A DNA stretch of 20,216 nt from a virus. Under the pieces are notes generated by a model. The model did not search any database. It was not told where the DNA came from and worked only from the letters and a program-made list of their open reading frames with translations. The stretch covers positions 1 to 20,216 of IMG/VR virus record IMGVR_UViG_3300009011_000064; one strand, written 5' to 3'. This document shows, piece after piece, positions 8,204 through 20,216 of this stretch (positions are counted from its first letter, which is position 1; each line of letters opens with the position of its first letter). Position numbers and translations under genes: made by a program.

Positions 8204-8221
8204 AGTTTTTTGGAGAGTGGA

Positions 8222-11200
8222 ATGGGTCAAGCACTTAAACGCGCTGCCCGGCAAGTTGTCGGTAGCAAGGGCGGTTCCAAGAAGCAGAAGCAGCCCAGCA
8301 TCGCTTCTAACAGCGTGCCCTCTATCGCCACGGTGCGCATGGTCTACCTGTGGAGCTGGGGGCCAATTGTAGGCCCGGTCAACGAGTTGCGCTCGGTGAA
8401 GCTGGACGGCACCGCTGTCATGGCAGACGACGGCACCCTGAACTACCCAGGCGTCAAATGGCAGTTCCGGTCCGGCGAGCTTAACCAAGAGCGGATGACC
8501 GGGATCAGTGAGTCCAGCAACGAGATTGCTGTCGGCCAGCAGTTGCTCAGCACCACGCCCTACGTTCATTCCATCACCAACTCCATGCTGGATGCCGTGC
8601 GCTTGCGCTTCTCGTGGCCGCAGCTGCAGTCCCAGGATTCGGGGGGCAACATCGACGGTGTTCGCATCGAGTATGCGGTAGATGTTTCCACCGATAACGG
8701 CCCGTTCCAGCAGGTGCTGCTGTCCGAGGTCAACCGCAAGAACGTCACCAAGTACGAGCGTTCGCACCGCATCGATCTGCCCGCCGGCAGCCGCTGGGCG
8801 ATCCGTGCCCGCCGGATCACGCCGGAAGCCAACAGCTCGCTGGTGCAGGACGGCATGTACGTCGAAGCCATCGCCGAGGTGGTCGACAGCGACCAGGAGT
8901 ATCCGCTGACCGCCGTCAGCTGCCTGGAGTACGACGCTGAGCAGTTCGGTGGCGATATCGCTAAGATCGCCGTGCTGATGCGCGGGCGGATCGTGCGTGT
9001 GCCCATGAACTACGACCCGGTGAGCCGCACGTATGCCACCAGCGGCGCCGGCACCACCAATGGCGTTTGGGACGGCACCTTCAAGGAGGCGTACACCAAC
9101 AACCCAGCCTGGGTGTTCTACGACCTGGCCCTGCACCCGTACTACGGCCTGGGCGATCGCATCGACGCGACCATGATCAACCGCTGGTCGCTATACCGCA
9201 TCGGGCAGTACTGCGACCAACTGGTACCGGACGGCTTGGGCGGCCAAGAACCGCGCTTCACCTGCAATCTGTACCTGCAGAAGCAGGCCGAGGCCTGGGC
9301 GGTGCTGCAGGACCTGGCGGCCATCTTCCATGGCCTGGCCTTCTGGGACGGCAGCCAGATCACCGTCAACGCCGATATGCCGCAGGACCCGGTCTACAAC
9401 TACACCCTGTCGCAGATCCTCGACGACGGTGCGGTCAAGTACACCGGCAGCAAGCTGCGCGATCGGCACAGCCAGGCCATGGTGTCGTTCGATGACCCGA
9501 ATCGAGGCTACGACACCGACAAAGAGCCGGTCTTCGATGAAAGCGCCATTGCCGAGTATGGCGTGCGCGAGATATCCGTGGAGGCTGTGGGATGCACTTC
9601 GCGCGGCCAGGCCCAGCGCGCAGGCCAGTGGGCGCTGATGACGGAGCAGCTGCAACTGCGTGGTGCCAGCTTCCGGGTCGGCCTGGATGGCTATATCCCG
9701 AAGCCAGGCAAAGTCATCACGCTGTCCGATCCGATGCTCGCTGGCCGTGCCAATGGCGGCCGTATTGCCGCAGTGGCCGGTCGTGTCGTGACGGTAGATC
9801 GTGACATCAAGGTACCAACTGGTGCTCGCTTGCTGGTCAACCTGCCCAGCGGCAAGTCCGAGGCGCGCCAAGTACGTTCGGTGGACGGCCGCCAGATCAC
9901 TGTCACGGCGGACTTCAGCGAGATACCGCAGCCTGAATGCGGATGGGTGCTGGACTTCGACGACCTGAAGCTCATGCAGTTCTACGTGCGCAACGTCACG
10001 CGCCCGGAGTGGCACCAGTTCCAGCTGGAGTGTATCCAGTACGAGCCGAGCAAGTTTGACGCAGTGGATTACGGCACGGTGATCGATGACCGCCCCATCA
10101 GCGTCCTGCCCCCGGGTGTACAAGATGCCCCGGCGCGCGTGCTGATCGGCAGCCATTCCTCGATTGACCAGGGCATCGCTGTCACCACCATGACGATCTC
10201 CTGGGATGCAGCGCCCGGGGCCGTGGCCTACGACGTTGAATGGCGCTGGGGTTCGCGTGACTGGGTAAAAATGCCGAGAACCGGTGAACTGGCTGCCGAT
10301 GTGCGTGGTGTGTATGCCGGCCAGTATTTGGCCCGCGTGCGCGCTGTCAGCTCCATGGATGTCTCGTCGATTCCGACTATCTCGTCACTCACCAACGTGG
10401 CCGGTAAGATCACGCCGCCGCCGGCGGTTACTTTCCTGACCACCGAGAGCCTGCTGTTCGGCATCGGCATCAAGTGGGGCTTTCCGGCCGGCGCCGAGGA
10501 CACCCAGCGTACTGAGCTGTGGTACAGCGAAGGCGCTGATCTGGACAAGGCCACCAAGCTGGCCGACCTGGCGTACCCGCAAAACGAGCACGTCATGCAG
10601 GGGCTGCGCGCCGGGCAGACGTTCTATTTCTGGGTCCGTCTGGTAGACCGCACTGGTAACGTGGGTCCTTGGTATCCGGTCGGCGGCGCAGTGGTCAGTG
10701 GCCAGGCCAGTGCAGACGCAGGCCCTATCCTCGAACAGATTGCAAAACAGATCACCGAGACCGAGCTGGGTAAGGAACTGACCGAACGCATCGACCTGGT
10801 CGACAAGAATGGACCCGGCTCGGTTAATGAACGCGTTGGTGAGGTCCGCAACGAGCTCAACGAGCAGATTGCCGAGGTTAATACCTCCATCCAGTCGGTC
10901 AACGACTCGGTGACGGTGGCGCGGGATGAGTTGCGTCAGCAGATCAATGCGGTGGACCAGGATGTCGAAGCCGCCAAAATCGCACTCCAGCAACAGATTG
11001 CCGCGGTTGATCAGGAGGTTGATGCCGCCAAGGCAGACCTGCAGCAACAGATCAACAGCGTGTCTGTTCTGGCCGGCTCGCTGCCGTACAACAAGGACAA
11101 GGCCTACAGCATTAACCAGGGCACACTGGGCGCCGACGGCAAGCTGTATCAGGCGTTGAAGGCGGTACCGAAGAACAACCCGCCGCCGAACGCTACCTAC

Positions 11201-14200
11201 TGGACGGATGTTGGGCAGGCTATCGTCACGGCGGCCGGTACCGCTGCGCGTGTGTCCAAGGTCGAAACCGACGTGACCACGCTGGACGGCAAGACGACTG
11301 CCCAGGCCACACAGCTCAATGGCCTGCAGACCAGCCTTACCACCACCAACCAGAACGTGACCACCGCGCAGCAGGCAGCTGAAGCGGCAAACACGCTGGC
11401 AGGAGGCAAGGGCAAGGTGATCATCCAGGCAGCGGCCCCGGCGGTTGCCGATCGTCTGGCCCAGAATCTCTGGATCGATACCACGGGCAACGCCAACACG
11501 CCGAAACGCTGGAGTGGCAGCGCCTGGGTGGCGGTCACGGACAAGGCTGCTACTGATGCTGCTGCGGCGGCCGCAAGCGCTTTGGCGCTGGCCCAGACCA
11601 AGGCTGACGCCACGGTGGTGAACAACCTGACCCTGCGCGTCTCGGATGCCGAGGGCAAGCTGGTGGCCGAAGGTCAGCGGCTGGATGGCATGCAGACCAG
11701 CCTGGACGGCAAGGCGACCTCGGCCGCCCTGCAGCAGGTCACCAGCCGTGTCACCGCGACCGAAGGTAAGAACGCCACACAGGACCAGCAGATCAGCTCG
11801 CAGAGTTCTGCCATCGTCTCGCTCACCGACAGCGTGGCCAAGAAGGCCGAAGTCTCGACCGTGCAGGCCCTGAGCAACCTGGTCAACCAGCAGGGGCAAG
11901 ACCTCACCGCGCAGGGCCAGGCACTGGTCAGCATCAATGCTGCGCTGCCGACGATGGGCGGAGAGAACCTGGTCTACAACCCCTCGTTCGAGCGGCAAAC
12001 CGATAACAATGGCGTTGCCCAGGGATGGTGGCACGACCGGTCGAGTAACGTCGGTAGCAGTGCGCCGTCGCTGGTCCCCTCGAAGCTTGCCGCAGGTGTC
12101 GCGCAGCGTCTTGATGTCACCGACATTCCCACCAATGGCTGGGCCCGGGTTTATCTGCGCGCGTCGCTCAAAGCGATCAAAGTCCGGCCGGGCGCCGTTT
12201 ACACCGCCTCGGTGTACATGCGGGGCACTGCAGGGCTGCGGATTTTGGCGCAGGTGTATAGCCGAGATGCGGCCGGGGCCAACAGCGTTTCATGGCCAGG
12301 CAACCGAGTCGACGCGGCCGAGACATGGCAGCGGGTATCGGTGACCTTCACCGCCACCGACCAGACCGTCGACGTCTGGCCAGCGGCGGTTGTCTATGGT
12401 GGGGCCGGGGTCACGGCCGGGTTTATCGAAGTTGACCAGTACCAGCTGGAGGAAGGCTCTCAGGCAAGTGGTTGGCGCGACAATGGACAGGTCGAGGCCG
12501 GTAACCAGGCGGCCACAGCGGCCGCTGTCGATGCCATGTCCGCCAAGGTGACCCAACAGGGCGCCGACCTGACCAGCGTGTCGAGTAAGACCACCTCACT
12601 GGAAAACAGCCTGACCACTACCAACGGCAACGTCACGACGGCGCAGCAGGCGGCACAAGCGGCGTCCGACGCGGCCGGCGCCAAGGGCAAGGTGCTGTAT
12701 CAGTCGACCGCGCCGGCCGTGGCAGATCGCCTGGCCCAGAACCTGTGGATCGACACCACCGGCAATGCCAACACGCCGAAACGCTGGAACGGCAGCACCT
12801 GGGTGGCGGTCAGCGACAAGGTGGCCACCGATGCCGCGGCTGCCGCTCAGTCGGCGATCAATCAGGTTGCGCAGAAGGCCGATGCGAGTGTTGTGAGCGG
12901 CCTGACTACCCGCGTCAGCGATGCAGAAGGCAAGCTGTCTTCCCAAGCGACCCGCCTGGACGGGATGCAGACCAGCATCGACGGCAAGGCCAGCTCTCAA
13001 TCCTTGCAGCAGGTGACCAACCGCGTCACAGCGACCGAGCAGAAGGACGCCGCGCAGGATCAGCAGTTGTCGTCGCAGAGCCAGGCGCTGGTGTCGCTCA
13101 CGGACACCGTAAGCAAGAAGGCCGAAGCTGCTGCGGTGCAGGCCTTGAGCAATGATGTGAAGCAGCAGGGGCAGACCCAATCGGCCCAGGGCAAGTCGCT
13201 GACCGACCTCAATGCCAAGCTGCTGGCCAGCCAGGACAATTCGCCGACCAAGGTCTATCAGAGCGTGTTCTCGGACATGGCGGTGGACCAGTGGGCGAAC
13301 CTGTTCGGCGGCCCTACGGCCAGCACCGTTTTCTCCAATGAGGAAGGTAACACCAGCGGGGCAACCATCAAGGTCAGCGGTGGCGCTGGCAATTCCACCT
13401 GGTGGGGCGCTTCGACCCGCAAAATCAGGTTTGACCCGACGCGGCTGTACAAGCTGTCCATTCGGTTCAAGCAGTTAACCGCCGGCAAGGGCAATCCAAT
13501 CACCTATGCCGGGGTGGACGGATTTGCCGAAGACGGCGTAACCCGGATCAACTCCAGTGGGGCCAACACCAAGGACTCTTCGCACTATGTGATCACTGCT
13601 GGCAGATCGCACCCGATTGGTGAATGGATGGAGTTCACCACCCATGTCAAAGGCTACACCGTTGGCAGTGAAGGGGGCGGGGCAGGTGCCGGTACCGTTG
13701 CCGATCCGAAGCGGTTGAAGACTGGGATTGCCTGGATTTCACCGATGCTGGTTGCCGGTTACAACAACATCGGCGGTGAGTTGGCGGTTGACTACTTCTT
13801 GATTGAAGACGTCACCGAGCAGGCTCAGATCGATGCCGGCGCCACGGCGACCAACGCGCTGGCCGTTCGAGTCGAGAAGAATGAGCAAGGGCTAAGCTCG
13901 GTCAGCAATCAAGCTGTACAGCTGGAAAACAGCCTGACCACCACCAATCAGAACGTGACGAATGCGCAGAATGCGGCGCAGGCCGCGTCCAACCTGGCCG
14001 GCAGCAAGGGTAAGGTCATCGTCCAGCGGGAGACGCCAGCGGCCGCTGACCAGCTTGCGCAGAACCTTTGGATTGACATAACAAACGGAGCCAACACCCC
14101 GAAACGCTGGACTACGTCGGGTTGGCTGCCGGTGACCGATAAAGTCGCCGTCGACGCCGCAGCGGCAGCGGCGAATGCCCTGTCCGAGGTGGCCAAGAAG

Positions 14201-17200
14201 GCCGACGCGAGTGCGCTGCAGTCGCTGAACAGCAAGGTGGATCAGCAAGGACGAGACCTGACTGCCACCAGCAACAACGTGGTGTCGCTGGGCAGCACCA
14301 TTGGCCGCGCTCTGGACAACTCGCCCACCAAGGTCTACCAAAGCGTGTTCTCGGACATGTCCATGGACCAGTGGGTGTCGACCAACAGCGGCGCCGGTGC
14401 CACTGCTTCGTACGGCGCACCTGCCGGCATCAGTCGGGGCGCTGCCTTGATCCTGAATGGCGGAGCCTCCAACAGAGCTTGGTGGGGCGCGTCCACGCGC
14501 AAGATCAGGTTTGACCCTTCGCGGCTCTACAAGCTGACCGTTCGCGTGCAACAAGTCCTGATGGGCGCCGGGTCGCCTGGTACGTATGCCGGCGTTGACT
14601 GCTTTGCCGAGGACGGCGTTACCCGGATCGCAACAAGTGGCGTGAACAGCGTGGGCTCCTCGCACTATGTGGTGCTGTCGAACCGGAAGATTCCTCAAGG
14701 CGAATGGCTGATCGCCGAGGTGTATGTCAAAGGCCATACCACCGGCAGCGAAGGCGGCGGAGCCGGCGGGGGTACGCTGGCCGACCCGAAGCGATTGAAG
14801 GAGGGCACAGCCTGGTTCTCGCCAATGCTCATCGCGGGTTACGACAACATGGGCGGGCAGGCCATCTTTGATTTCTTCGACATTGAAGATGTGACCGAGC
14901 AGGCCCAGTTGGATGCCGGCGCCGCTGCGACGTCGGCGTTAGGGACGCGGATCACCCAGACCGAGCAGGGACTGACCAGTGCTTCCAATCAGCTCACTGA
15001 GCTGAATAACAACATAGGCGATGTCGGCGGGGAGAATCTGGTTTTCAACCCGTCCTTTGAGCGAGCGGACCCCGGCACCCCAGGGATGGCCGACGGGTGG
15101 TGGCACGACGGGACAGGGAGCGGTATTCGCACGCCTACGTTGGTGCAATCTACATTGGCTTCTGGTGTGGCCCAGCGCCTGGATGTGTCAGGCCTGTCCC
15201 CAGCAACCTGGGCTCGGGCCTATGTGAAGTCGGCCGGACGGTTCAAGCCAGTCCCCGGAAAGACCTACACAGCATCCGTGTACCTTCGGGGCACCCCTGG
15301 CTTGCGGGTTCTTCCCGGGGTGTACGGGACCAATGAGGCAGGAGCCGGGACCGAGAGCTGGGGGGCGGCAAGGGCTGATGCAAGTGAGTCCTGGGTGCGT
15401 CTGTCGGTGACCTTCACCCCTGGCCCCACCACCACCAAGCTGTTCGCGGCATTTGTGGTGTATGGCGGCGCATCAGTCAGCGGTGGCTACATTGAGGCTG
15501 ATCGCTACCAGATCGAAGAGGGCACCCGCGCCACGGGCTGGAGGGATAACGGTCAGGTCGCCAGCGCCCAGCAAGCGGCGACCTCCGCTGCTGTTGAGTC
15601 GCTCAGTTCGGCGGTCTCGCAGCAGGCTGGCACGCTGTCGAGTGTGGGGAGCCGGACCACCAGTTTGGAAAACAATCTCACCACGACCAATGGCAACGTG
15701 AACACAGCGCAGCAGGCAGCTGATGCGGCGAACACGCTGGCAGGTGGCAAAGGGAAGGTGATCATCCAGGCGGCCGCCCCGGCCGTGGCTGACCGTTTGC
15801 CCCAAAACCTGTGGATCGACACCACCGGCAACGCCAACACCCCCAAACGCTGGAGCGGCAGCGCCTGGGTGGCGGTGACCGACAAAGCGGCTACCGATGC
15901 GGCGGCGGCGGCACAGTCGGCGCTTACTCAGGTTGCGACCAAGGCCTCCGCCTCGTCGGTCGATGCGCTGACGCAGCGGGTCACTAGCAATGAAGGCGGC
16001 CTGGCTTCTCAGTCGAGCAACATCCTTGATTTGCGAAACTCGGTTGCAGCTGTACAGAAAGCGGCCGATGCCTCGGTTGGCCTGGACCCTGCGCCTGGGT
16101 GCACCTGGCAGTTCGATAATGGTGCTGAGGGATGGTATGGCGCGAACGCTACTGCAGTAGCTGGAACCGGGTTCTTGAAGGTCACAGCCACTGCAAGCAA
16201 CCCTCAACTGCAGAGCGCTGCGGCTGCTATTGGCCTTACTGGCGCGCTGTTCACCAGGGTCAGGGCGCGCATCACCCGAAGGGGCGGTAGCGGCTGGCGT
16301 GGAACGCTTTATTACGCCACTCCAGGTCACGGGTTTTCCTCCACCATCTACTCCACCTTGCCTAACCCAGGCTTGGCGATCGGCGATTCGGCGATCGTGG
16401 AATGGGACATGGAAAACCTGAACAGTGGGGGCACGGACTGGGTAGACAGCACCATCAGTCGCTTGCGTCTGGATCTTGGGGCGGTGAGCGGGGATGTGTT
16501 TGACGTTGACTGGATTGTCGTGGGCCGTGTGGCCCCGGCCGCATCGAGCCGTGCACTGTCGTCAGTGGAAAGCACTGTCACCCAGCAGGGCAGCAAGCTG
16601 ACGGCAGAGACATTGCGTATCGACGGGTTGTACACCGCCGTAGGCGATGCCAACGCGGCGATTCAGAACGAAGCCAAGGCCCGGGTTGATGGGGAAGGGG
16701 CGCTAAGCAAGCAGATCCAGACCACCCAGTCGTCGCTGGGCACGACCAATGCGGCGGTGCAGCAGGTTGCGACGGCTCAGGCGAACATGAAGGGGATGCT
16801 TAACGCCCAATACACCATGCGGGTGCAGGTGAACAACCAATATGGTGCGCACGTCTGGGCGGGCTTCGGTATTGGTATCAACGAGCAGAACGGCGTTGTG
16901 CAGTCTGCGTTTGTGATCAATGCGGACAAGTTCATCTTGCTCAATACGACCGGCGGACTTTCGTCGCCGTGGTCTGTAGTGGGTGGCCAGACCTTTGTGG
17001 CTGATGCCTACATTCGCAAGGGGAGTATCGGTCGCGCGAAGATCGCAGATGCGGCCATCGGTACCGCCAATATCGAAGATGGTGCCATTAAGGCCGCCAA
17101 GATCGGGGTGGCCGAAATTGACACGCTGCGCATCCGTGGCAACGCCGTCACGGTTCCGGTATCGGCTAATAACCCCGGGAATGTGCTCGGCGTCGGTGTA

Positions 17201-17500
17201 GGCCAGTGGCAAAACCTGATCGCCATCGGCGTGCAAATGGACGAGGGTGGTTTCATCACTGCCCAGTACAGCTGCTATCAGGGATTTGGCAGCGGTATTC
17301 GTAAGTACCAATTCCAGATGGATATCAACGGCCTGGTTATCGCTCAAGGTGGCGGCGACTGGGCGGATAGTTTCCCCAACCTTATGGGATCGATCGGTGT
17401 GGGCCCGGGTTACTTCGTCATCACGGTGAAGTGGTGGGGCGAGAACTCAGGGGTTGGCGTTCAGAACCACACCCTTTATGCAATGGGAACCAAGCGATGA
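8222..17500 (+). CDS. Giant J-type tail tip / host-specificity protein (3092 aa)
   Basis: Starts at ATG 8222 after TTTTGGAG; the in-frame TTG at 8210 lies inside that ribosome site. Lambda J is 1132 aa. Residues 1-630 are the conserved tip-forming J core (VRMVYLWSWGPIVGPVNEL, PAWVFYDLALHPYYGLGDRI). Residues 631-727 and 729-830 are FN3-like. Coiled coil runs at 834-950, with an aromatic chitin-binding-like module at 954-999. Then follows a mosaic: R1 1039-1118, linker 1119-1244, A1 1245-1423, R2 1464-1543, linker 1544-1671, B1 1672-1880, R3 1905-1984, B2 2032-2240, A2 2268-2445, R4 2486-2565, C 2622-2769. A DUF1983-like domain lies near 2856-2974 (GFGIGINEQNGVVQSAFVIN), and a unique beta-rich tip at 2975-3092. 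The reading frame is intact throughout. J proteins recognise the receptor; A/B/C modules probably bind surface glycans (inference). The stop overlaps the next start (ATGA). Confidence 0.95.
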   Translation: MGQALKRAARQVVGSKGGSKKQKQPSIASNSVPSIATVRMVYLWSWGPIVGPVNELRSVKLDGTAVMADDGTLNYPGVKWQFRSGELNQERMTGISESSNEIAVGQQLLSTTPYVHSITNSMLDAVRLRFSWPQLQSQDSGGNIDGVRIEYAVDVSTDNGPFQQVLLSEVNRKNVTKYERSHRIDLPAGSRWAIRARRITPEANSSLVQDGMYVEAIAEVVDSDQEYPLTAVSCLEYDAEQFGGDIAKIAVLMRGRIVRVPMNYDPVSRTYATSGAGTTNGVWDGTFKEAYTNNPAWVFYDLALHPYYGLGDRIDATMINRWSLYRIGQYCDQLVPDGLGGQEPRFTCNLYLQKQAEAWAVLQDLAAIFHGLAFWDGSQITVNADMPQDPVYNYTLSQILDDGAVKYTGSKLRDRHSQAMVSFDDPNRGYDTDKEPVFDESAIAEYGVREISVEAVGCTSRGQAQRAGQWALMTEQLQLRGASFRVGLDGYIPKPGKVITLSDPMLAGRANGGRIAAVAGRVVTVDRDIKVPTGARLLVNLPSGKSEARQVRSVDGRQITVTADFSEIPQPECGWVLDFDDLKLMQFYVRNVTRPEWHQFQLECIQYEPSKFDAVDYGTVIDDRPISVLPPGVQDAPARVLIGSHSSIDQGIAVTTMTISWDAAPGAVAYDVEWRWGSRDWVKMPRTGELAADVRGVYAGQYLARVRAVSSMDVSSIPTISSLTNVAGKITPPPAVTFLTTESLLFGIGIKWGFPAGAEDTQRTELWYSEGADLDKATKLADLAYPQNEHVMQGLRAGQTFYFWVRLVDRTGNVGPWYPVGGAVVSGQASADAGPILEQIAKQITETELGKELTERIDLVDKNGPGSVNERVGEVRNELNEQIAEVNTSIQSVNDSVTVARDELRQQINAVDQDVEAAKIALQQQIAAVDQEVDAAKADLQQQINSVSVLAGSLPYNKDKAYSINQGTLGADGKLYQALKAVPKNNPPPNATYWTDVGQAIVTAAGTAARVSKVETDVTTLDGKTTAQATQLNGLQTSLTTTNQNVTTAQQAAEAANTLAGGKGKVIIQAAAPAVADRLAQNLWIDTTGNANTPKRWSGSAWVAVTDKAATDAAAAAASALALAQTKADATVVNNLTLRVSDAEGKLVAEGQRLDGMQTSLDGKATSAALQQVTSRVTATEGKNATQDQQISSQSSAIVSLTDSVAKKAEVSTVQALSNLVNQQGQDLTAQGQALVSINAALPTMGGENLVYNPSFERQTDNNGVAQGWWHDRSSNVGSSAPSLVPSKLAAGVAQRLDVTDIPTNGWARVYLRASLKAIKVRPGAVYTASVYMRGTAGLRILAQVYSRDAAGANSVSWPGNRVDAAETWQRVSVTFTATDQTVDVWPAAVVYGGAGVTAGFIEVDQYQLEEGSQASGWRDNGQVEAGNQAATAAAVDAMSAKVTQQGADLTSVSSKTTSLENSLTTTNGNVTTAQQAAQAASDAAGAKGKVLYQSTAPAVADRLAQNLWIDTTGNANTPKRWNGSTWVAVSDKVATDAAAAAQSAINQVAQKADASVVSGLTTRVSDAEGKLSSQATRLDGMQTSIDGKASSQSLQQVTNRVTATEQKDAAQDQQLSSQSQALVSLTDTVSKKAEAAAVQALSNDVKQQGQTQSAQGKSLTDLNAKLLASQDNSPTKVYQSVFSDMAVDQWANLFGGPTASTVFSNEEGNTSGATIKVSGGAGNSTWWGASTRKIRFDPTRLYKLSIRFKQLTAGKGNPITYAGVDGFAEDGVTRINSSGANTKDSSHYVITAGRSHPIGEWMEFTTHVKGYTVGSEGGGAGAGTVADPKRLKTGIAWISPMLVAGYNNIGGELAVDYFLIEDVTEQAQIDAGATATNALAVRVEKNEQGLSSVSNQAVQLENSLTTTNQNVTNAQNAAQAASNLAGSKGKVIVQRETPAAADQLAQNLWIDITNGANTPKRWTTSGWLPVTDKVAVDAAAAAANALSEVAKKADASALQSLNSKVDQQGRDLTATSNNVVSLGSTIGRALDNSPTKVYQSVFSDMSMDQWVSTNSGAGATASYGAPAGISRGAALILNGGASNRAWWGASTRKIRFDPSRLYKLTVRVQQVLMGAGSPGTYAGVDCFAEDGVTRIATSGVNSVGSSHYVVLSNRKIPQGEWLIAEVYVKGHTTGSEGGGAGGGTLADPKRLKEGTAWFSPMLIAGYDNMGGQAIFDFFDIEDVTEQAQLDAGAAATSALGTRITQTEQGLTSASNQLTELNNNIGDVGGENLVFNPSFERADPGTPGMADGWWHDGTGSGIRTPTLVQSTLASGVAQRLDVSGLSPATWARAYVKSAGRFKPVPGKTYTASVYLRGTPGLRVLPGVYGTNEAGAGTESWGAARADASESWVRLSVTFTPGPTTTKLFAAFVVYGGASVSGGYIEADRYQIEEGTRATGWRDNGQVASAQQAATSAAVESLSSAVSQQAGTLSSVGSRTTSLENNLTTTNGNVNTAQQAADAANTLAGGKGKVIIQAAAPAVADRLPQNLWIDTTGNANTPKRWSGSAWVAVTDKAATDAAAAAQSALTQVATKASASSVDALTQRVTSNEGGLASQSSNILDLRNSVAAVQKAADASVGLDPAPGCTWQFDNGAEGWYGANATAVAGTGFLKVTATASNPQLQSAAAAIGLTGALFTRVRARITRRGGSGWRGTLYYATPGHGFSSTIYSTLPNPGLAIGDSAIVEWDMENLNSGGTDWVDSTISRLRLDLGAVSGDVFDVDWIVVGRVAPAASSRALSSVESTVTQQGSKLTAETLRIDGLYTAVGDANAAIQNEAKARVDGEGALSKQIQTTQSSLGTTNAAVQQVATAQANMKGMLNAQYTMRVQVNNQYGAHVWAGFGIGINEQNGVVQSAFVINADKFILLNTTGGLSSPWSVVGGQTFVADAYIRKGSIGRAKIADAAIGTANIEDGAIKAAKIGVAEIDTLRIRGNAVTVPVSANNPGNVLGVGVGQWQNLIAIGVQMDEGGFITAQYSCYQGFGSGIRKYQFQMDINGLVIAQGGGDWADSFPNLMGSIGVGPGYFVITVKWWGENSGVGVQNHTLYAMGTKR
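10931..11064 (+). repeat. 18-residue coiled-coil repeat in J (about 2.5 copies)
   Basis: Units begin at 10931, 10985 and 11039, exactly 54 bases apart: LRQQINAVDQDVEAAKIA, LQQQIAAVDQEVDAAKAD, then LQQQINSV. The periodicity, with hydrophobic I/V/A positions and Gln/Glu elsewhere, fits a trimeric coiled-coil stalk after the FN3 domains. Confidence 0.85.
11081..11218 (+). other. Aromatic carbohydrate-binding-like module in J
   Basis: About 46 residues: LPYNKDKAYSINQGTLGADG, then KLYQALKAV, and finally ATYWTDVGQ. The order (turn, 'LYQAL', proline stretch, YWxxVG) resembles CBM5/12-type chitin-binding modules found in phage tail proteins and chitinases. The resemblance is by pattern only; sugar binding is inferred. 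Confidence 0.5.
11336..11575 (+). repeat. J repeat R1 (80 aa, 'LWID...W' unit)
   Basis: First of four copies. It begins LTTTNQNVTTAQQAA (helical lead), then GGKGKVII, the core AQNLWIDTTGNANTPKRW, WVAVTDK and an Ala-rich helix. The invariant Trp residues (LWID, RW, WVAV) suggest a small beta hairpin between coiled-coil segments. It is 75/80 identical to R4. Confidence 0.9.
11576..11953 (+). repeat. J long coiled-coil linker, copy 1
   Basis: 126 residues joining R1 to A1 (TLRVSDAEGKLVAEGQRLDG, SRVTATEGK, IVSLTDSVAKKAE, VQALSNLVNQQGQ). It is paralogous to 12851-13234. Regular seven-residue hydrophobic spacing supports a fibre stalk. Confidence 0.82.
11954..12490 (+). repeat. J module A1 (jelly-roll/CBM-like, 179 aa)
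   Basis: Opens MGGENLVYNPSFER and GWWHD, has YTASVYMRGTAGLRI, AAETWQRVSVTFTA, VYGG, then a FIEVDQYQLEEG strand and GWRDNGQ. 'NLVxNPSFE ... GWxxD ... W.R.SVTFTA ... QLEEGS.A.GW' is the usual plan of CBM_4_9-type beta-sandwich modules. Second copy at 15023. Confidence 0.85.
12611..12850 (+). repeat. J repeat R2 (80 aa)
   Basis: Second copy, with the same length and the core AQNLWIDTTGNANTPKRW unchanged. The preceding segment differs (KVLYQSTAPAVADR instead of KVIIQAAAPAVADR). Follows module A1 after a 40-aa linker. Confidence 0.9.
12851..13234 (+). repeat. J long coiled-coil linker, copy 2
   Basis: 128 residues joining R2 to B1 (TTRVSDAEGKLSSQATRLDG, NRVTATEQK, LVSLTDTVSKKAE, VQALSNDVKQQGQ). 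It is clearly the same unit as 11576-11953, so R plus linker forms a composite repeat of about 207 aa. Confidence 0.82.
13235..13861 (+). repeat. J module B1 (209 aa beta module)
   Basis: Opens DNSPTKVYQSVFSDM, followed by WWGASTRKIRFDPTRLYKLS, YAGVDGFAEDGVTRI, GEWMEFTTHVKG, GSEGGGAGAG, KRLKTGIAWISPMLVAGY, and ends DVTEQAQIDAG. Probably a second type of beta-sandwich ligand-binding module. B2 has exactly the same length. Confidence 0.85.
13934..14173 (+). repeat. J repeat R3 (80 aa, most diverged)
   Basis: Third copy. The core is changed to LWIDITNGANTPKRW and the tail to TTSGWLPVTDKVAVDAAA, but length and Trp positions are kept. Lies between B1 and B2. Confidence 0.88.
14315..14941 (+). repeat. 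J module B2 (209 aa beta module)
   Basis: The start of B1 and the STRKIRFDP and RLYKL segments are conserved, as are YAGVDCFAEDGVTRI, GSEGGGAGGG and DVTEQAQLDAG. Differences concentrate in the region after DQW and in the exposed loops, as expected for ligand-contacting surfaces. Confidence 0.85.
15023..15556 (+). repeat. J module A2 (jelly-roll/CBM-like, 178 aa)
   Basis: Opens VGGENLVFNPSFER and GWWHD, with YTASVYLRGTPGLRV, ASESWVRLSVTFTP and RYQIEEGTRATGWRDNGQ. Same plan as A1 but visibly diverged. Each A module is followed by a 40-aa linker ending in TTSLEN and then an R unit. Confidence 0.85.
15677..15916 (+). repeat. J repeat R4 (80 aa)
   Basis: Fourth copy, nearly the same protein as R1, including GGKGKVIIQAAAPAVADR. 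In R4 residues 23-79 I count about 26 silent codon differences from R1 and only one replacement (Ala to Pro before QNLWID). Confidence 0.9.
16085..16528 (+). other. J module C (single-copy beta module)
   Basis: About 148 residues opening DPAPGCTWQFDNGAEGWYG and containing RVRARITRRGGSGWRGTLYY and GDVFDVDWIVVGR. The 'WxFDxGxEGW...' start and final 'FDVDWIxVG' strand are typical of CBM-like jelly rolls. Not repeated in this window. Confidence 0.7.
16787..17497 (+). other. J C-terminal DUF1983-like domain and unique tip
   Basis: MRVQVNNQYGAHVWAGFGIG and VVQSAFVINADKFILL match the DUF1983 domain common near J C-termini. It is followed by an IG/KI hexad stretch (KIADAAIGTANIEDGAIKAA), probably a small trimeric beta-helix. 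The last 118 residues (from 17144) are Gly-rich and beta-like, with several Trp and Tyr (GVGQWQNLIAIGVQM, FVITVKWWGENSG) and no recognisable family. This is the likeliest receptor-contacting end. Confidence 0.7.
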
Positions 17501-18371: not shown

Positions 18372-18818
18372 ATGAGCACACCCCGCGGCGTCCGCAACCG
18401 GAACCCCGGCAATATCGATTACAACCCACGCAACGCCTGGCAGGGCCAGCTTGGCCTAGAGGAAGGCGTAGCCAAGCCGCGATTCGCTCGCTTCGATCAT
18501 CCTGAGAACGGCATCCGAGCCCTGGGCAAGCTGCTGATTAACTACCGTGGCAAGGACGGCATGCCCGGGGTGGGGGGGAAGGGCATCGATACGGTGCTCG
18601 AAACCATCAATCGCTGGGCGCCGAGCAACGAGAACGATACGCAGGCCTACGCCAGCGCCGTGGCCAAGCGCCTGGGTGTGCGCACCACCGATCCGATCAA
18701 CATCAAGGACCCGGCCACGCTGCGGGGAATGGTGCTCAGCATCATCATCCACGAGAACGGTGGTAACCCTTATCCGTCGGCAATCATCGATGAGGGCGTT
18801 CGGAGGGCGCTGACATGA
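18372..18818 (+). CDS. Phage cell-wall hydrolase (probable endolysin)
   Basis: A 148-aa soluble protein without signal peptide or transmembrane anchor, with GGAGA before ATG 18372. Motifs: RGVRNRNPGNIDYN at the N-terminus, RFDHPENGIRALGKLLINY (residues 37-57), RWAPSNENDTQAYASAVAKR (81-100) and IIHENGG (126-131). The 'RNxNPGNI ... F..pE.GIRA ... RWAPxxENdT..Y' outline belongs to a phage lysozyme/transglycosylase-like family often labelled 'structural protein' in Pseudomonas prophages. Placement directly before overlapping spanin genes argues for the endolysin role. Candidate catalytic acids are Glu45, Glu88 and Glu129. Needing no signal, it should depend on a holin, which is not encoded nearby. 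Its stop overlaps the spanin ATG (ATGA). Confidence 0.8.
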   Translation: MSTPRGVRNRNPGNIDYNPRNAWQGQLGLEEGVAKPRFARFDHPENGIRALGKLLINYRGKDGMPGVGGKGIDTVLETINRWAPSNENDTQAYASAVAKRLGVRTTDPINIKDPATLRGMVLSIIIHENGGNPYPSAIIDEGVRRALT

Positions 18819-19324
18819 CCTGGCTCGGCACGGTACCGGCCTGGTGCTGGTGGCTGATCGCGCTGGTCCTGGTGGCTGGAGGCCAGGAAATTCGTGTGGG
18901 AGCGGGAAAGTCGGATGCCTCGGTGGCAATGTCGGAACTATCCGACTACCGACTGGAGGTAGCGGAGCGCGACCGCCGCGCCGCCGCCAAGGCCAGAACA
19001 GAAGAACAGCGCCGCCAAGCCGTGGCGGACGAGGAGGGTGAGAGTGCACGACAGCAACTGGAATTGGCCCAAGGCCGCGCCGCTGCTGCTGAGTCTGCTG
19101 CTGGCGGGCTGCGCGGGGAAATCGCCCGACTGCGGGCCGGGCACGGAGCCACCTGCGACACCATCGCTGCCCAGCACCGCCAAGCAGGAACCTCTGCCCT
19201 CGTGGTGCTCGGGGGATTGCTTGAAGAAGCTGACCAAATGGCGGGCAGCTGCGCAGCAGCGCTTGAGCGAAGCCGAATAGCTGGGCTGGCGTGCGAGTCG
19301 ATCTATAATGGCCTGACCAAGTGA
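18815..19324 (+). CDS. Inner-membrane spanin, Rz-like (DUF2514-like)
   Basis: A 169-aa protein starting in the ATGA overlap with the hydrolase. Residues 4-23 (LGTVPAWCWWLIALVLVAGG) form the single N-terminal membrane anchor. Residues about 38-108 are a charged coiled coil (AERDRRAAAKARTEEQRRQA, QLELAQGRAAAAESAAGGLR). The C-terminal part (ATCDTIAAQHRQAGTS, LGGLLEEADQMAGSCAAALE, ACESIYNGL) resembles DUF2514 spanins of Pseudomonas phages. The i-spanin spans the periplasm and, with the lipoprotein encoded within its own gene, fuses inner and outer membranes at the last step of lysis. Confidence 0.88.
   Translation: MTWLGTVPAWCWWLIALVLVAGGQEIRVGAGKSDASVAMSELSDYRLEVAERDRRAAAKARTEEQRRQAVADEEGESARQQLELAQGRAAAAESAAGGLRGEIARLRAGHGATCDTIAAQHRQAGTSALVVLGGLLEEADQMAGSCAAALERSRIAGLACESIYNGLTK
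19044..19280 (+). CDS. Outer-membrane lipoprotein spanin, Rz1-like, nested in Rz
   Basis: A 78-aa protein in the +1 frame, entirely inside the i-spanin gene. I prefer GTG 19044 over GTG 19038 because AGGAGG (19032-19037) is 6 bases from the former and touches the latter. The signal sequence WPKAAPLLLSLLLAGC ends in a lipobox (LLAGC) with the lipidated Cys at residue 23. The mature protein is small and Pro/Ser-rich (GPGTEPPATPSLPST, EPLPSWCSGDC) and ends in a helix (LKKLTKWRAAAQQRLSEAE). This is the classic Rz1 layout. The extra cysteines may form disulfides, as in o-spanin dimers. Confidence 0.9.
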   Translation: MHDSNWNWPKAAPLLLSLLLAGCAGKSPDCGPGTEPPATPSLPSTAKQEPLPSWCSGDCLKKLTKWRAAAQQRLSEAE

Positions 19325-19337
19325 ACAGGAGCTCGCA

Positions 19338-19562
19338 GTGGACAAGCGCACGTTTATCGGAATGGTCGAGGCCGGCGAGCCGCTGATTCAGCAGGCAATC
19401 GACGCCATGCGCGAGTATCACCAGGCCCAGGATCGGGGCGGTTCGCCAGAGGAAATCGAGCGCCTGCGCCTGCTAGCCGAGTCGCTGTTCCAGGCGGTCT
19501 CCGACTACCAGCTTCGCGCTGTGGCCAGGGCTCGGGGCAAGGAGCTGCCGCCTCTTCACTGA
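19338..19562 (+). CDS. Small helical protein of unknown function (74 aa)
   Basis: Starts at GTG 19338 with AGGAG (19327-19331) 6 bases upstream, 13 bases after the spanin stop. The sequence is almost wholly helical and charged: FIGMVEAGEPLIQQAIDAMR, then REYHQAQDRGGSPEEIERLR, then LLAESLFQAVSDYQLRAVAR. It has no signal peptide, Cys or membrane segment. Co-transcription with the lysis genes is likely. I do not recognise a family; small acidic helical proteins here could be late regulators or host-takeover factors, but that is speculation. Confidence 0.7.
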   Translation: MDKRTFIGMVEAGEPLIQQAIDAMREYHQAQDRGGSPEEIERLRLLAESLFQAVSDYQLRAVARARGKELPPLH

Positions 19563-19577
19563 TCCGCTGATCGGCGA

Positions 19578-19606
19578 TTGCCCAGGGCTAGGTCCGCCTA
19601 TACGAT
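19578..19606 (+). promoter_or_regulatory. Sigma-70 type promoter of the SOS unit
   Basis: -35 TTGCCC (19578-19583), a 17-base spacer, -10 TACGAT (19601-19606). Each hexamer matches consensus at 4 of 6 positions, with ideal spacing. The predicted start of transcription (about 19613) falls inside the LexA box. Confidence 0.6.
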
Positions 19607-19607
19607 G

Positions 19608-19623
19608 CTGTATCTTTATACAG
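19608..19623 (+). promoter_or_regulatory. LexA box (SOS operator)
   Basis: CTGT-ATCTTTAT-ACAG: both half-sites match the gamma-proteobacterial CTGT-N8-ACAG consensus exactly, with an AT-rich centre. It begins 2 bases after the -10 and ends 12 bases before ATG 19636, the classic position for LexA to block initiation. Confidence 0.9.
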
Positions 19624-19635
19624 TAATGGTGCCCC

Positions 19636-19929
19636 ATGTATTTTCTCCTCGTTTGCCGCCGGGTGAATGGCGCGGCCATCCCTTCCGAACAGCTCAGTAA
19701 GGTGAAGCCTTTGCGCGCCGACATCCACATCGGTGACCATCACAGTGAGCCGCTGGGCCGGGTATCGACCCAGGCATGGGTGTTCAATCCAACGCCCGGG
19801 CCCGATATCATCCCGCGCCTGCACGACGCCAGGGTCAACGGGATGGCCCAGCTCGGCATCAACATCAACGGGCTTGAGGAAGTCGACGGCGTTCTGTACG
19901 CCCAGTCCTGGTGGTGCAGGGCAGAATGA
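19636..19929 (+). CDS. SOS-controlled protein of unknown function (97 aa)
   Basis: First gene after the LexA box, from ATG 19636. The Shine-Dalgarno is weak (GGTG, 4 bases from the ATG) and the leader only about 22 bases. The sequence starts [20 protein letters not shown], then [53 protein letters not shown] and ends QSWWCRAE. It looks like a compact alpha/beta soluble protein with conserved-looking His/Asp clusters (DIHIGDHH) and a Trp-Trp-Cys end; no membrane segment. I recognise no enzyme family. The next gene starts in an ATGA overlap, so the two are translationally coupled. Confidence 0.8.
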
Positions 19930-20216
19930 TGGCCGGGATACCGCAGGCTTGGCTGGATGAACTGAACGACCGATTCGCTCTGGTCACTGATCCCGAGGGG
20001 CGCGCGGCTGTGCTCGACGAGATGGCCTATGCAGCCCATCGTCGCCGAGAGGTTGCGGAGGAGAACCTGGTAGACATGCTGGAACTTACGGAATCGGCGA
20101 GGGCGTGGGCGCTGCTCGAGCACGAGGAGGCTTGGCACATTGGCCTTTTTCAATACGAGGGTTGGGTAGATCGCGAGCCAGGACGGATCGTGGTCGGCAG
20201 GGCGCCGGGGAAGGGG
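19926..20216 (+). CDS. Second gene of the SOS unit, unknown function (3' end outside the window)
   Basis: ATG 19926 overlaps the preceding stop (ATGA); a second ATG follows at once. The frame stays open for 97 codons to the window edge. The visible protein starts [20 protein letters not shown], then [20 protein letters not shown] and [17 protein letters not shown], and continues [17 protein letters not shown]. It is helical and acidic with a glutamate-rich centre; no signal peptide or catalytic motif is evident. Synonymous coding style matches its neighbours. Function unknown; coupling to the LexA-regulated gene implies DNA-damage induction. Confidence 0.7.

What the first reader, a model, noticed from the sequence alone, without database searches (positions are those of the whole stretch)
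19578..20216. LexA-controlled two-gene unit of unknown function beside the lysis genes
A textbook promoter-LexA box arrangement drives two coupled genes that I cannot assign. Their expression would rise with the SOS response, the same signal that induces many prophages. They could be a DNA-damage repair or checkpoint pair, an anti-host factor timed with induction, or the first genes of a host SOS operon just past the prophage end. One hypothesis is that an SOS-associated peptidase (SRAP/YedK type) or another repair gene follows downstream.
Basis: partly seen in the sequence, partly recalled or inferred. Interest (0 to 1): 0.7.

Follow-up and report, generated by a model that had tools for sequence, protein, structure and literature searches.

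The report
SOS-switched gene pair in Pseudomonas prophages
At the end of this Pseudomonas prophage sit two small, never-described genes behind a switch that DNA damage turns on; the same switch is kept in hundreds of relatives on phages, plasmids and chromosomes, often beside known DNA-damage genes, so the pair probably helps cope with damaged DNA.

Summary
Confirmed: a perfect LexA box (CTGTATCTTTATACAG, 19608-19623) over a weak sigma-70 promoter precedes two overlapping, purifying-selected genes (ORF1 97 aa, 19636-19929; ORF2 from 19926, cut by the contig end within a few codons of its stop). The box is functional by comparative evidence: 143 of 153 distinct ORF1 relatives carry one upstream (125 within 60 bp, versus 1.4% of control ORFs). 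This holds in prophages, an inovirus, conjugative plasmids and apparently non-phage chromosomal sites, down to 22-31% identity. Both proteins are unannotated (phrog_5560, phrog_6137; no Pfam, NCBIfam or PDB relatives). In relatives the pair shares its LexA promoter with SRAP/YedK (27 of 168 loci), UmuD or UmuD'-like proteins (8), or lies in operons SRAP<-box->umuD-umuC-ORF1 or -ORF2; one such operon occupies the window's own slot in a sibling prophage. Best reading: a modular, LexA-controlled SOS cassette of Pseudomonas mobile elements whose two unknown proteins assist DNA-damage tolerance near Pol V/SRAP; regulation is near certain, biochemical role inferred. A LexA-controlled antirepressor (Gifsy/Tum type) is the main rival. 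The 'host operon past the prophage end' idea is rejected: free phage Medea1 carries the pair between Rz and integrase.

The parts
19578..19583 (+). putative -35 hexamer TTGCCC (17 bp before the -10)
   Evidence: read; TTG weakly conserved in 126 relatives
19601..19606 (+). putative -10 hexamer TACGAT
   Evidence: conserved T, A, T positions directly before the box in 126 distinct upstream regions; below threshold of the consensus scan
19608..19623 (+). LexA (SOS) box CTGTATCTTTATACAG, over the expected transcription start
   Evidence: conserved upstream of 143 of 153 relatives
19636..19929 (+). ORF1, 97 aa, phrog_5560; predicted all-beta protein with invariant C-terminal QSWWCR-type motif
19926..20216 (+). 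ORF2, at least 97 aa (stop lies just past the contig end), phrog_6137; predicted helical, conserved core DPDGRAAVLxEMA..LxDMLELAEAAR, variable tail
19338..19562 (+). small gene of unknown function upstream (phrog_9523), not LexA-linked; marks the slot in which sibling prophages carry SRAP/umuDC cassettes
18815..19324 (+). Rz-like i-spanin (DUF2514), with Rz1-like 19038-19280 nested inside: lysis genes next to the pair

Best explanation
The unit is a minimal version of a modular, LexA-repressed SOS cassette that Pseudomonas temperate phages (and some plasmids, an inovirus and chromosomal sites) carry. Undamaged cell: host LexA sits on 19608-19623, over the transcription start, and keeps the pair off, independently of the phage repressor. 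DNA damage: RecA-triggered LexA cleavage opens the promoter and ORF1 and ORF2 are translated together. Larger versions of the cassette add SRAP/YedK on the divergent side and UmuD, UmuD' or UmuC on the same side, so ORF1 (small beta protein) and ORF2 (small helical protein) most likely act as accessory factors in tolerance of damaged DNA, at or near Pol V-type translesion synthesis or abasic-site handling, so that the host and the induced phage genome survive the damage that triggers induction. Shown by computation: box, promoter position, coding, conservation, operon partners. Inferred: LexA binding, induction, and the biochemical role.
For: Box conserved upstream of 143/153 ORF1 relatives, 1.4% in controls, also before ORF2 where it occurs without ORF1 (L314, L328, L329) and in relatives outside Pseudomonas (L308-L310). 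Neighbours: SRAP in 27/168 loci, S24 UmuD-like in 8. L199: SRAP <- box -> UmuD-UmuC-ORF1. L029, a sibling prophage with the window's own upstream gene: SRAP <- box -> UmuD-UmuC-ORF2. L390: SRAP <- box -> UmuD-UmuC-ORF2, genes overlapping. L013: box-ORF2-UmuD'-ORF1. Plasmids L132, L133: SRAP <- box -> ORF1-UmuD'-ORF2-like. SRAP and small partners of Y-family polymerases are established neighbours of SOS mutagenesis genes (PMC3765255, PMC6511836).
Against: Most ORF1/ORF2 copies, this window included, have no SRAP, UmuD or UmuC neighbour (138 of 168), and the 30 best-scoring umuC loci sampled have neither ORF1 nor ORF2, so the association is one-sided. No homology to any protein of known function; fold matches are insignificant. 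Some co-location could reflect a shared LexA promoter slot, not shared biochemistry. No expression data were found.
Confidence: 0.5

Rival explanations
1. The pair is a LexA-controlled induction switch: one protein is an antirepressor that inactivates the phage repressor when LexA is cleaved, the other a DinI-like SOS modulator, as in Gifsy prophages and phage 186 (Tum).
For: Gifsy and 186 phages have LexA-controlled small-gene operons outside the immunity region, with dinI and antirepressor in either order (PMC3121763); our pair also occurs in both orders. 11 of 15 readable repressors of sister phages carry Met-Gly instead of Ala-Gly at the expected cleavage position, so their self-cleavage is uncertain.
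Against: All 16 sister or related phages tested encode an S24-type repressor, and those read keep the catalytic Ser (and, in most, Lys); Medea1, PG1 and two others have a canonical Ala-Gly site and still carry ORF1. ORF1 occurs on plasmids, in an inovirus and at chromosomal sites without a phage repressor to inhibit, and inside umuDC operons. No Pfam match of either protein.
Confidence: 0.17
2. The pair is an SOS-timed host-takeover or cell-cycle effector, for example a division inhibitor or mild toxin that arrests the lysogen during induction.
For: Small, fast-evolving, LexA-controlled proteins beside the lysis genes; SOS-linked division inhibitors are a known kind (general knowledge).
Against: Conserved solitary copies at chromosomal sites and co-operonic UmuC/UmuD and SRAP fit repair better; no match in the defence library.
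Confidence: 0.15
3. The pair is a toxin-antitoxin module under SOS control.
For: Two small, translationally coupled genes on mobile elements.
Against: Either gene occurs without the other under its own LexA box (ORF1: L202, L203; ORF2: L314, L328), gene order is reversible and UmuD' can lie between them; padloc gives no match.
Confidence: 0.05

Closest known systems
Gifsy dinI-gfoA/gftA operons and phage 186 Tum (LexA-controlled antirepressor operons; PMC3121763)
   Same: LexA box over the promoter of a short operon of small genes, outside the immunity region of a prophage; gene order interchangeable
   Different: no detectable DinI or antirepressor homology; the pair also lives on plasmids and chromosomes and in umuDC operons; sister phages encode S24 repressors
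SRAP/YedK and ImuB-C, SOS-operon companions of Pol IV/Pol V (PMC3765255)
   Same: recognised by gene neighbourhood with umuDC and by LexA control; SRAP itself is a recurrent neighbour of our pair
   Different: neither ORF matches SRAP (PF02586); far narrower distribution (mainly Pseudomonas)
YolD family, small partner of UvrX/YqjW Y-family polymerases (PMC6511836)
   Same: small SOS-controlled beta-type protein (YolD is predicted to have an SH3-like barrel), found on prophages and in polymerase operons
   Different: no sequence match; ORF1 is next to UmuC in only one locus seen, whereas YolD almost always accompanies its polymerase
Phage P1 HumD and other pre-shortened UmuD' proteins (own knowledge; library papers on P1 mention it)
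   Same: LexA-controlled UmuD'-like protein on mobile elements; in relatives of our unit such a protein is encoded between or beside ORF1 and ORF2
   Different: ORF1 and ORF2 themselves are not S24 proteins; the window has no umuD

Membership tests
LexA (SOS) regulon | CTGT-N8-ACAG box over or beside the promoter | tested here: met
   19608-19623; directly downstream of TACGAT
LexA (SOS) regulon | box conserved in orthologous loci | tested here: met
   143 of 153 relatives; 125 within 60 bp versus 61 of 4433 controls
LexA (SOS) regulon | LexA binding and induction by DNA damage | not testable with these tools
   needs gel shift and reporter assays
LexA-controlled phage antirepressor (Gfo/Gft/AntC/Tum) | LexA-controlled small gene of a prophage, outside the immunity region | tested here: met
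   pair lies next to lysis genes; the S24 repressor lies tens of kb away in most sister records
LexA-controlled phage antirepressor (Gfo/Gft/AntC/Tum) | cognate repressor not RecA-cleavable | tested here: inconclusive
   S24 repressors in 16 of 16 records; 4 with Ala-Gly, 11 with Met-Gly at the site, 1 not read
LexA-controlled phage antirepressor (Gfo/Gft/AntC/Tum) | binds and inactivates the phage repressor | not testable with these tools
   needs protein-protein and induction assays
DinI family | match to a DinI profile | tested here: not met
   no Pfam match for ORF1 or ORF2 up to E = 1
SRAP/YedK | SRAP domain (PF02586) | tested here: not met
   no match in ORF1 or ORF2; present in neighbouring genes of relatives
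UmuD / UmuD' (HumD) | S24 peptidase domain | tested here: not met
   no match; present in neighbouring genes of relatives
YolD family | sequence-profile relationship | tested here: not met
   no Pfam match; hhalign probability 0.5% against SPbeta YolD, a single sequence, so shallow
YolD family | encoded with a Y-family polymerase | tested here: not met
   only rare relatives: L199 (ORF1), L029 and L390 (ORF2); not in this window
Toxin-antitoxin module | two genes obligatorily together | tested here: not met
   solitary ORF1 (L202, L203) and solitary ORF2 (L314, L328)

The most novel reading that the evidence does not exclude
ORF1 and ORF2 are previously unrecognised cofactors of a Pol V-type mutasome (or of SRAP-mediated abasic-site protection), spread by phages, plasmids and inoviruses as interchangeable parts of one LexA-controlled cassette, so that prophages tune mutagenesis and survival of their Pseudomonas hosts.
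Probability: 0.25. Interest if true: 0.75.

Novelty: new variant of a known kind. Interest (0 to 1): 0.5.

Why it matters
Two widespread protein families labelled 'unknown function' (ORF1 in 101 of 399 Pseudomonas genomes sampled, and in at least 418 stretches of IMG/VR contigs) get a firm regulatory assignment and a short list of testable roles. If they assist translesion synthesis or lesion protection, mobile elements carry a plug-in DNA-damage toolkit beyond SRAP and UmuDC, which bears on mutagenesis, prophage induction and evolution of environmental pseudomonads. The modular slot beside the lysis genes also offers a natural series of variants for comparing the parts.

Tried and rejected
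Pfam, NCBIfam, PADLOC and PDB sequence searches: no relatives. Fold searches with a confident ORF1 model (pLDDT 92): only weak PH-like-barrel and EndoMS N-domain resemblance, VIA Z at most 5.6, Foldseek E at best 0.014, taken as uninformative; ORF2 model helical, no significant match. YolD homology: none. ORF1-ORF2 relatedness: none. ORF2 versus the upstream small gene: none. Host-operon idea: rejected (Medea1). Downstream tRNA search for attachment sites: a tRNA follows shortly after ORF2 in L005, L017 and L026 but not in most others, so only weakly informative. The RNAalifold consensus of the element after ORF2 shows almost no covariation. Literature: no SOS transcriptome naming these genes was found; P. 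fluorescens DC206 and P. putida LexA regulon papers are not in the library.

Full report
WHAT IS THERE. The window is a virus record of 20,216 bases. Its right end reads endolysin-like gene 18372-18818, Rz (DUF2514) 18815-19324 with an Rz1-like gene nested at 19038-19280, a small gene of unknown function 19338-19562, then the reported unit. The unit has TTGCCC (19578-19583), 17 bp, TACGAT (19601-19606), a perfect LexA palindrome CTGTATCTTTATACAG (19608-19623), ORF1 (19636-19929, 97 aa) and ORF2 (ATG 19926, overlapping ORF1's stop; open at the contig end). Sister proteins end one to a few residues past the point where the window stops, so the pair is essentially complete. The promoter is weaker than 'textbook' (8 of 12 consensus positions).

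IS IT MORE THAN CHANCE. In this window alone the box would not convince (0.27 perfect CTGT-N8-ACAG expected). Relatives convince. tblastn-confirmed relatives were fetched from 84,980 genomes and from IMG/VR, from phage and plasmid records and by profile from Pseudomonas genomes. Of 153 distinct ORF1 proteins, 125 have a box within 60 bp upstream (mostly 12-13 bp before the start codon) and 18 have one 180-380 bp upstream, where an ORF2-like gene usually lies between; 10 have none. Control ORFs of at least 90 codons in the same loci: 61 of 4433 within 60 bp. Controls include spurious ORFs, and relatives are not independent, so this is an enrichment and not a p-value. The box persists where the proteins are only about 22-31% identical to ORF1 and outside Pseudomonas (L308-L310). 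The -10 TACGATA is also conserved (the CTG/CAG ends of the box are imposed by that search and are not evidence). Both ORFs show third-position-biased substitution.

WHERE THE UNIT LIVES. (a) Prophages: next to lysis genes, last viral genes before the end of many trimmed prophage records. In free phage Medea1 the order is Rz, box, ORF1, ORF2, then integrase on the other strand, which places the unit inside the phage. (b) P. fluorescens-group chromosomes: reversed order box-ORF2-ORF1 beside phage baseplate genes (L182, L185, L193, L197). (c) Conjugative plasmids of P. syringae/P. cerasi. (d) Inovirus PfAC02b with its own box. (e) Apparently non-phage chromosomal sites with ORF1 alone and its own box (L202, L203). 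In a sample of the genus, 101 of 399 genomes have ORF1; in a sample of the class only 2 genomes besides the query strain.

PARTNERS. SRAP lies beside ORF1 in 27 of 168 distinct loci, nearly always divergent and sharing the LexA box; S24 UmuD-like proteins in 8; UmuC in 1. Several arrangements seem independent: SRAP <- box -> ORF1-ORF2 (putida-group prophages, e.g. L322); SRAP-ORF1 on one strand (phages PG1, pAN); SRAP <- box -> ORF1-UmuD'-ORF2-like (L132, L133; the third gene matches the ORF2 profile, E 2.4e-5; L219 has SRAP, ORF1 and UmuD' in the same order); box-ORF2-UmuD'-ORF1 (L013); SRAP <- box -> UmuD-UmuC-ORF1 (L199; UmuC confirmed by IMS, IMS_C and DUF4113); SRAP <- box -> UmuD-UmuC-ORF2 (L029 and L390). 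L029 is a prophage whose preceding gene is the same as the one before the window's unit, so one genomic slot holds either the bare pair or a Pol V cassette. The UmuD' of the plasmids starts at the region after the usual cleavage site, as in pre-shortened UmuD' proteins. The association is one-sided: the 30 best umuC loci sampled lack both genes.

PROTEINS. ORF1: confident AlphaFold2 model (pLDDT 92), one short and five long strands, invariant G12, A47, L62, G79, Q90, W92. Weak likeness to PH-like barrels and to the N-terminal domain of EndoMS, below significance. ORF2: helical, conserved DPDGRAAVL..MLELAEAAR core, variable tail. Neither resembles a known family.

MECHANISM. LexA repression of the pair and release by RecA-stimulated LexA cleavage follow from established SOS biology and the conserved box. 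Because the switch is the host's LexA, the pair can respond even when the phage repressor holds; it may also be read from the upstream late genes, which run on the same strand. The role is inferred from company: SRAP, UmuD' and UmuC act on abasic sites and translesion synthesis, and neighbourhood analysis of this kind identified SRAP and ImuB-C (PMC3765255) and supported YolD as the UmuD counterpart in Gram-positive bacteria (PMC6511836). I therefore favour a DNA-damage-tolerance accessory role (0.5). The best rival is a Gifsy/Tum-like antirepressor operon (PMC3121763): the architecture fits and many sister repressors have an unusual Met-Gly at the cleavage position, but the unit also lives where no phage repressor exists.

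VERDICT. Observation confirmed; interpretation partly supported; family undescribed as far as the searched library shows; mechanism open but sharply testable.

Noticed in passing
L049:6597-6745 and about 48 other sister loci, also L029:10600-10751; just past the end of the window: A conserved non-coding element of about 145 nt follows the ORF2 stop: near-perfect 10-bp inverted repeat TGTCTAAAAC...GTATTAGACA, then a GGCCGC hairpin, then CTACTGCTGCA, after which sequences diverge. Not in Rfam, little covariation: perhaps a DNA site rather than an RNA.
   Followed up: partly
L166-L170, L172-L177: S24-type repressors of putida-group sister phages have Met-Gly instead of Ala-Gly at the expected self-cleavage position.
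   Followed up: partly
L124 (Pseudomonas phage PfAC02b): A filamentous phage carries an ORF1 relative with its own LexA box next to its Gabija defence genes.
   Followed up: no
L204:3906-4253, L205:3983-4336, L206:3928-4275, L207:3929-4276: A subgroup of ORF1 relatives has a conserved C-terminal tail (PW..CPR..L..LI), possibly a short binding peptide.
   Followed up: no
window 19338-19562: Small gene phrog_9523 between Rz and the LexA unit; in sister L318 it is present in two tandem copies. Function unknown.
   Followed up: partly
window 8210-17500: A 3096-residue tail-tip (J-like) open frame with several repeated modules (NLVYNPSFER...GWWHD and KGKVIIQ...WIDTTGNANTPKRW).
   Followed up: no
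L308, L310, L311, L312 (one genome, G661): A gammaproteobacterial genome outside the Pseudomonas sample has four diverged ORF1 copies, at least two with a LexA box.
   Followed up: partly
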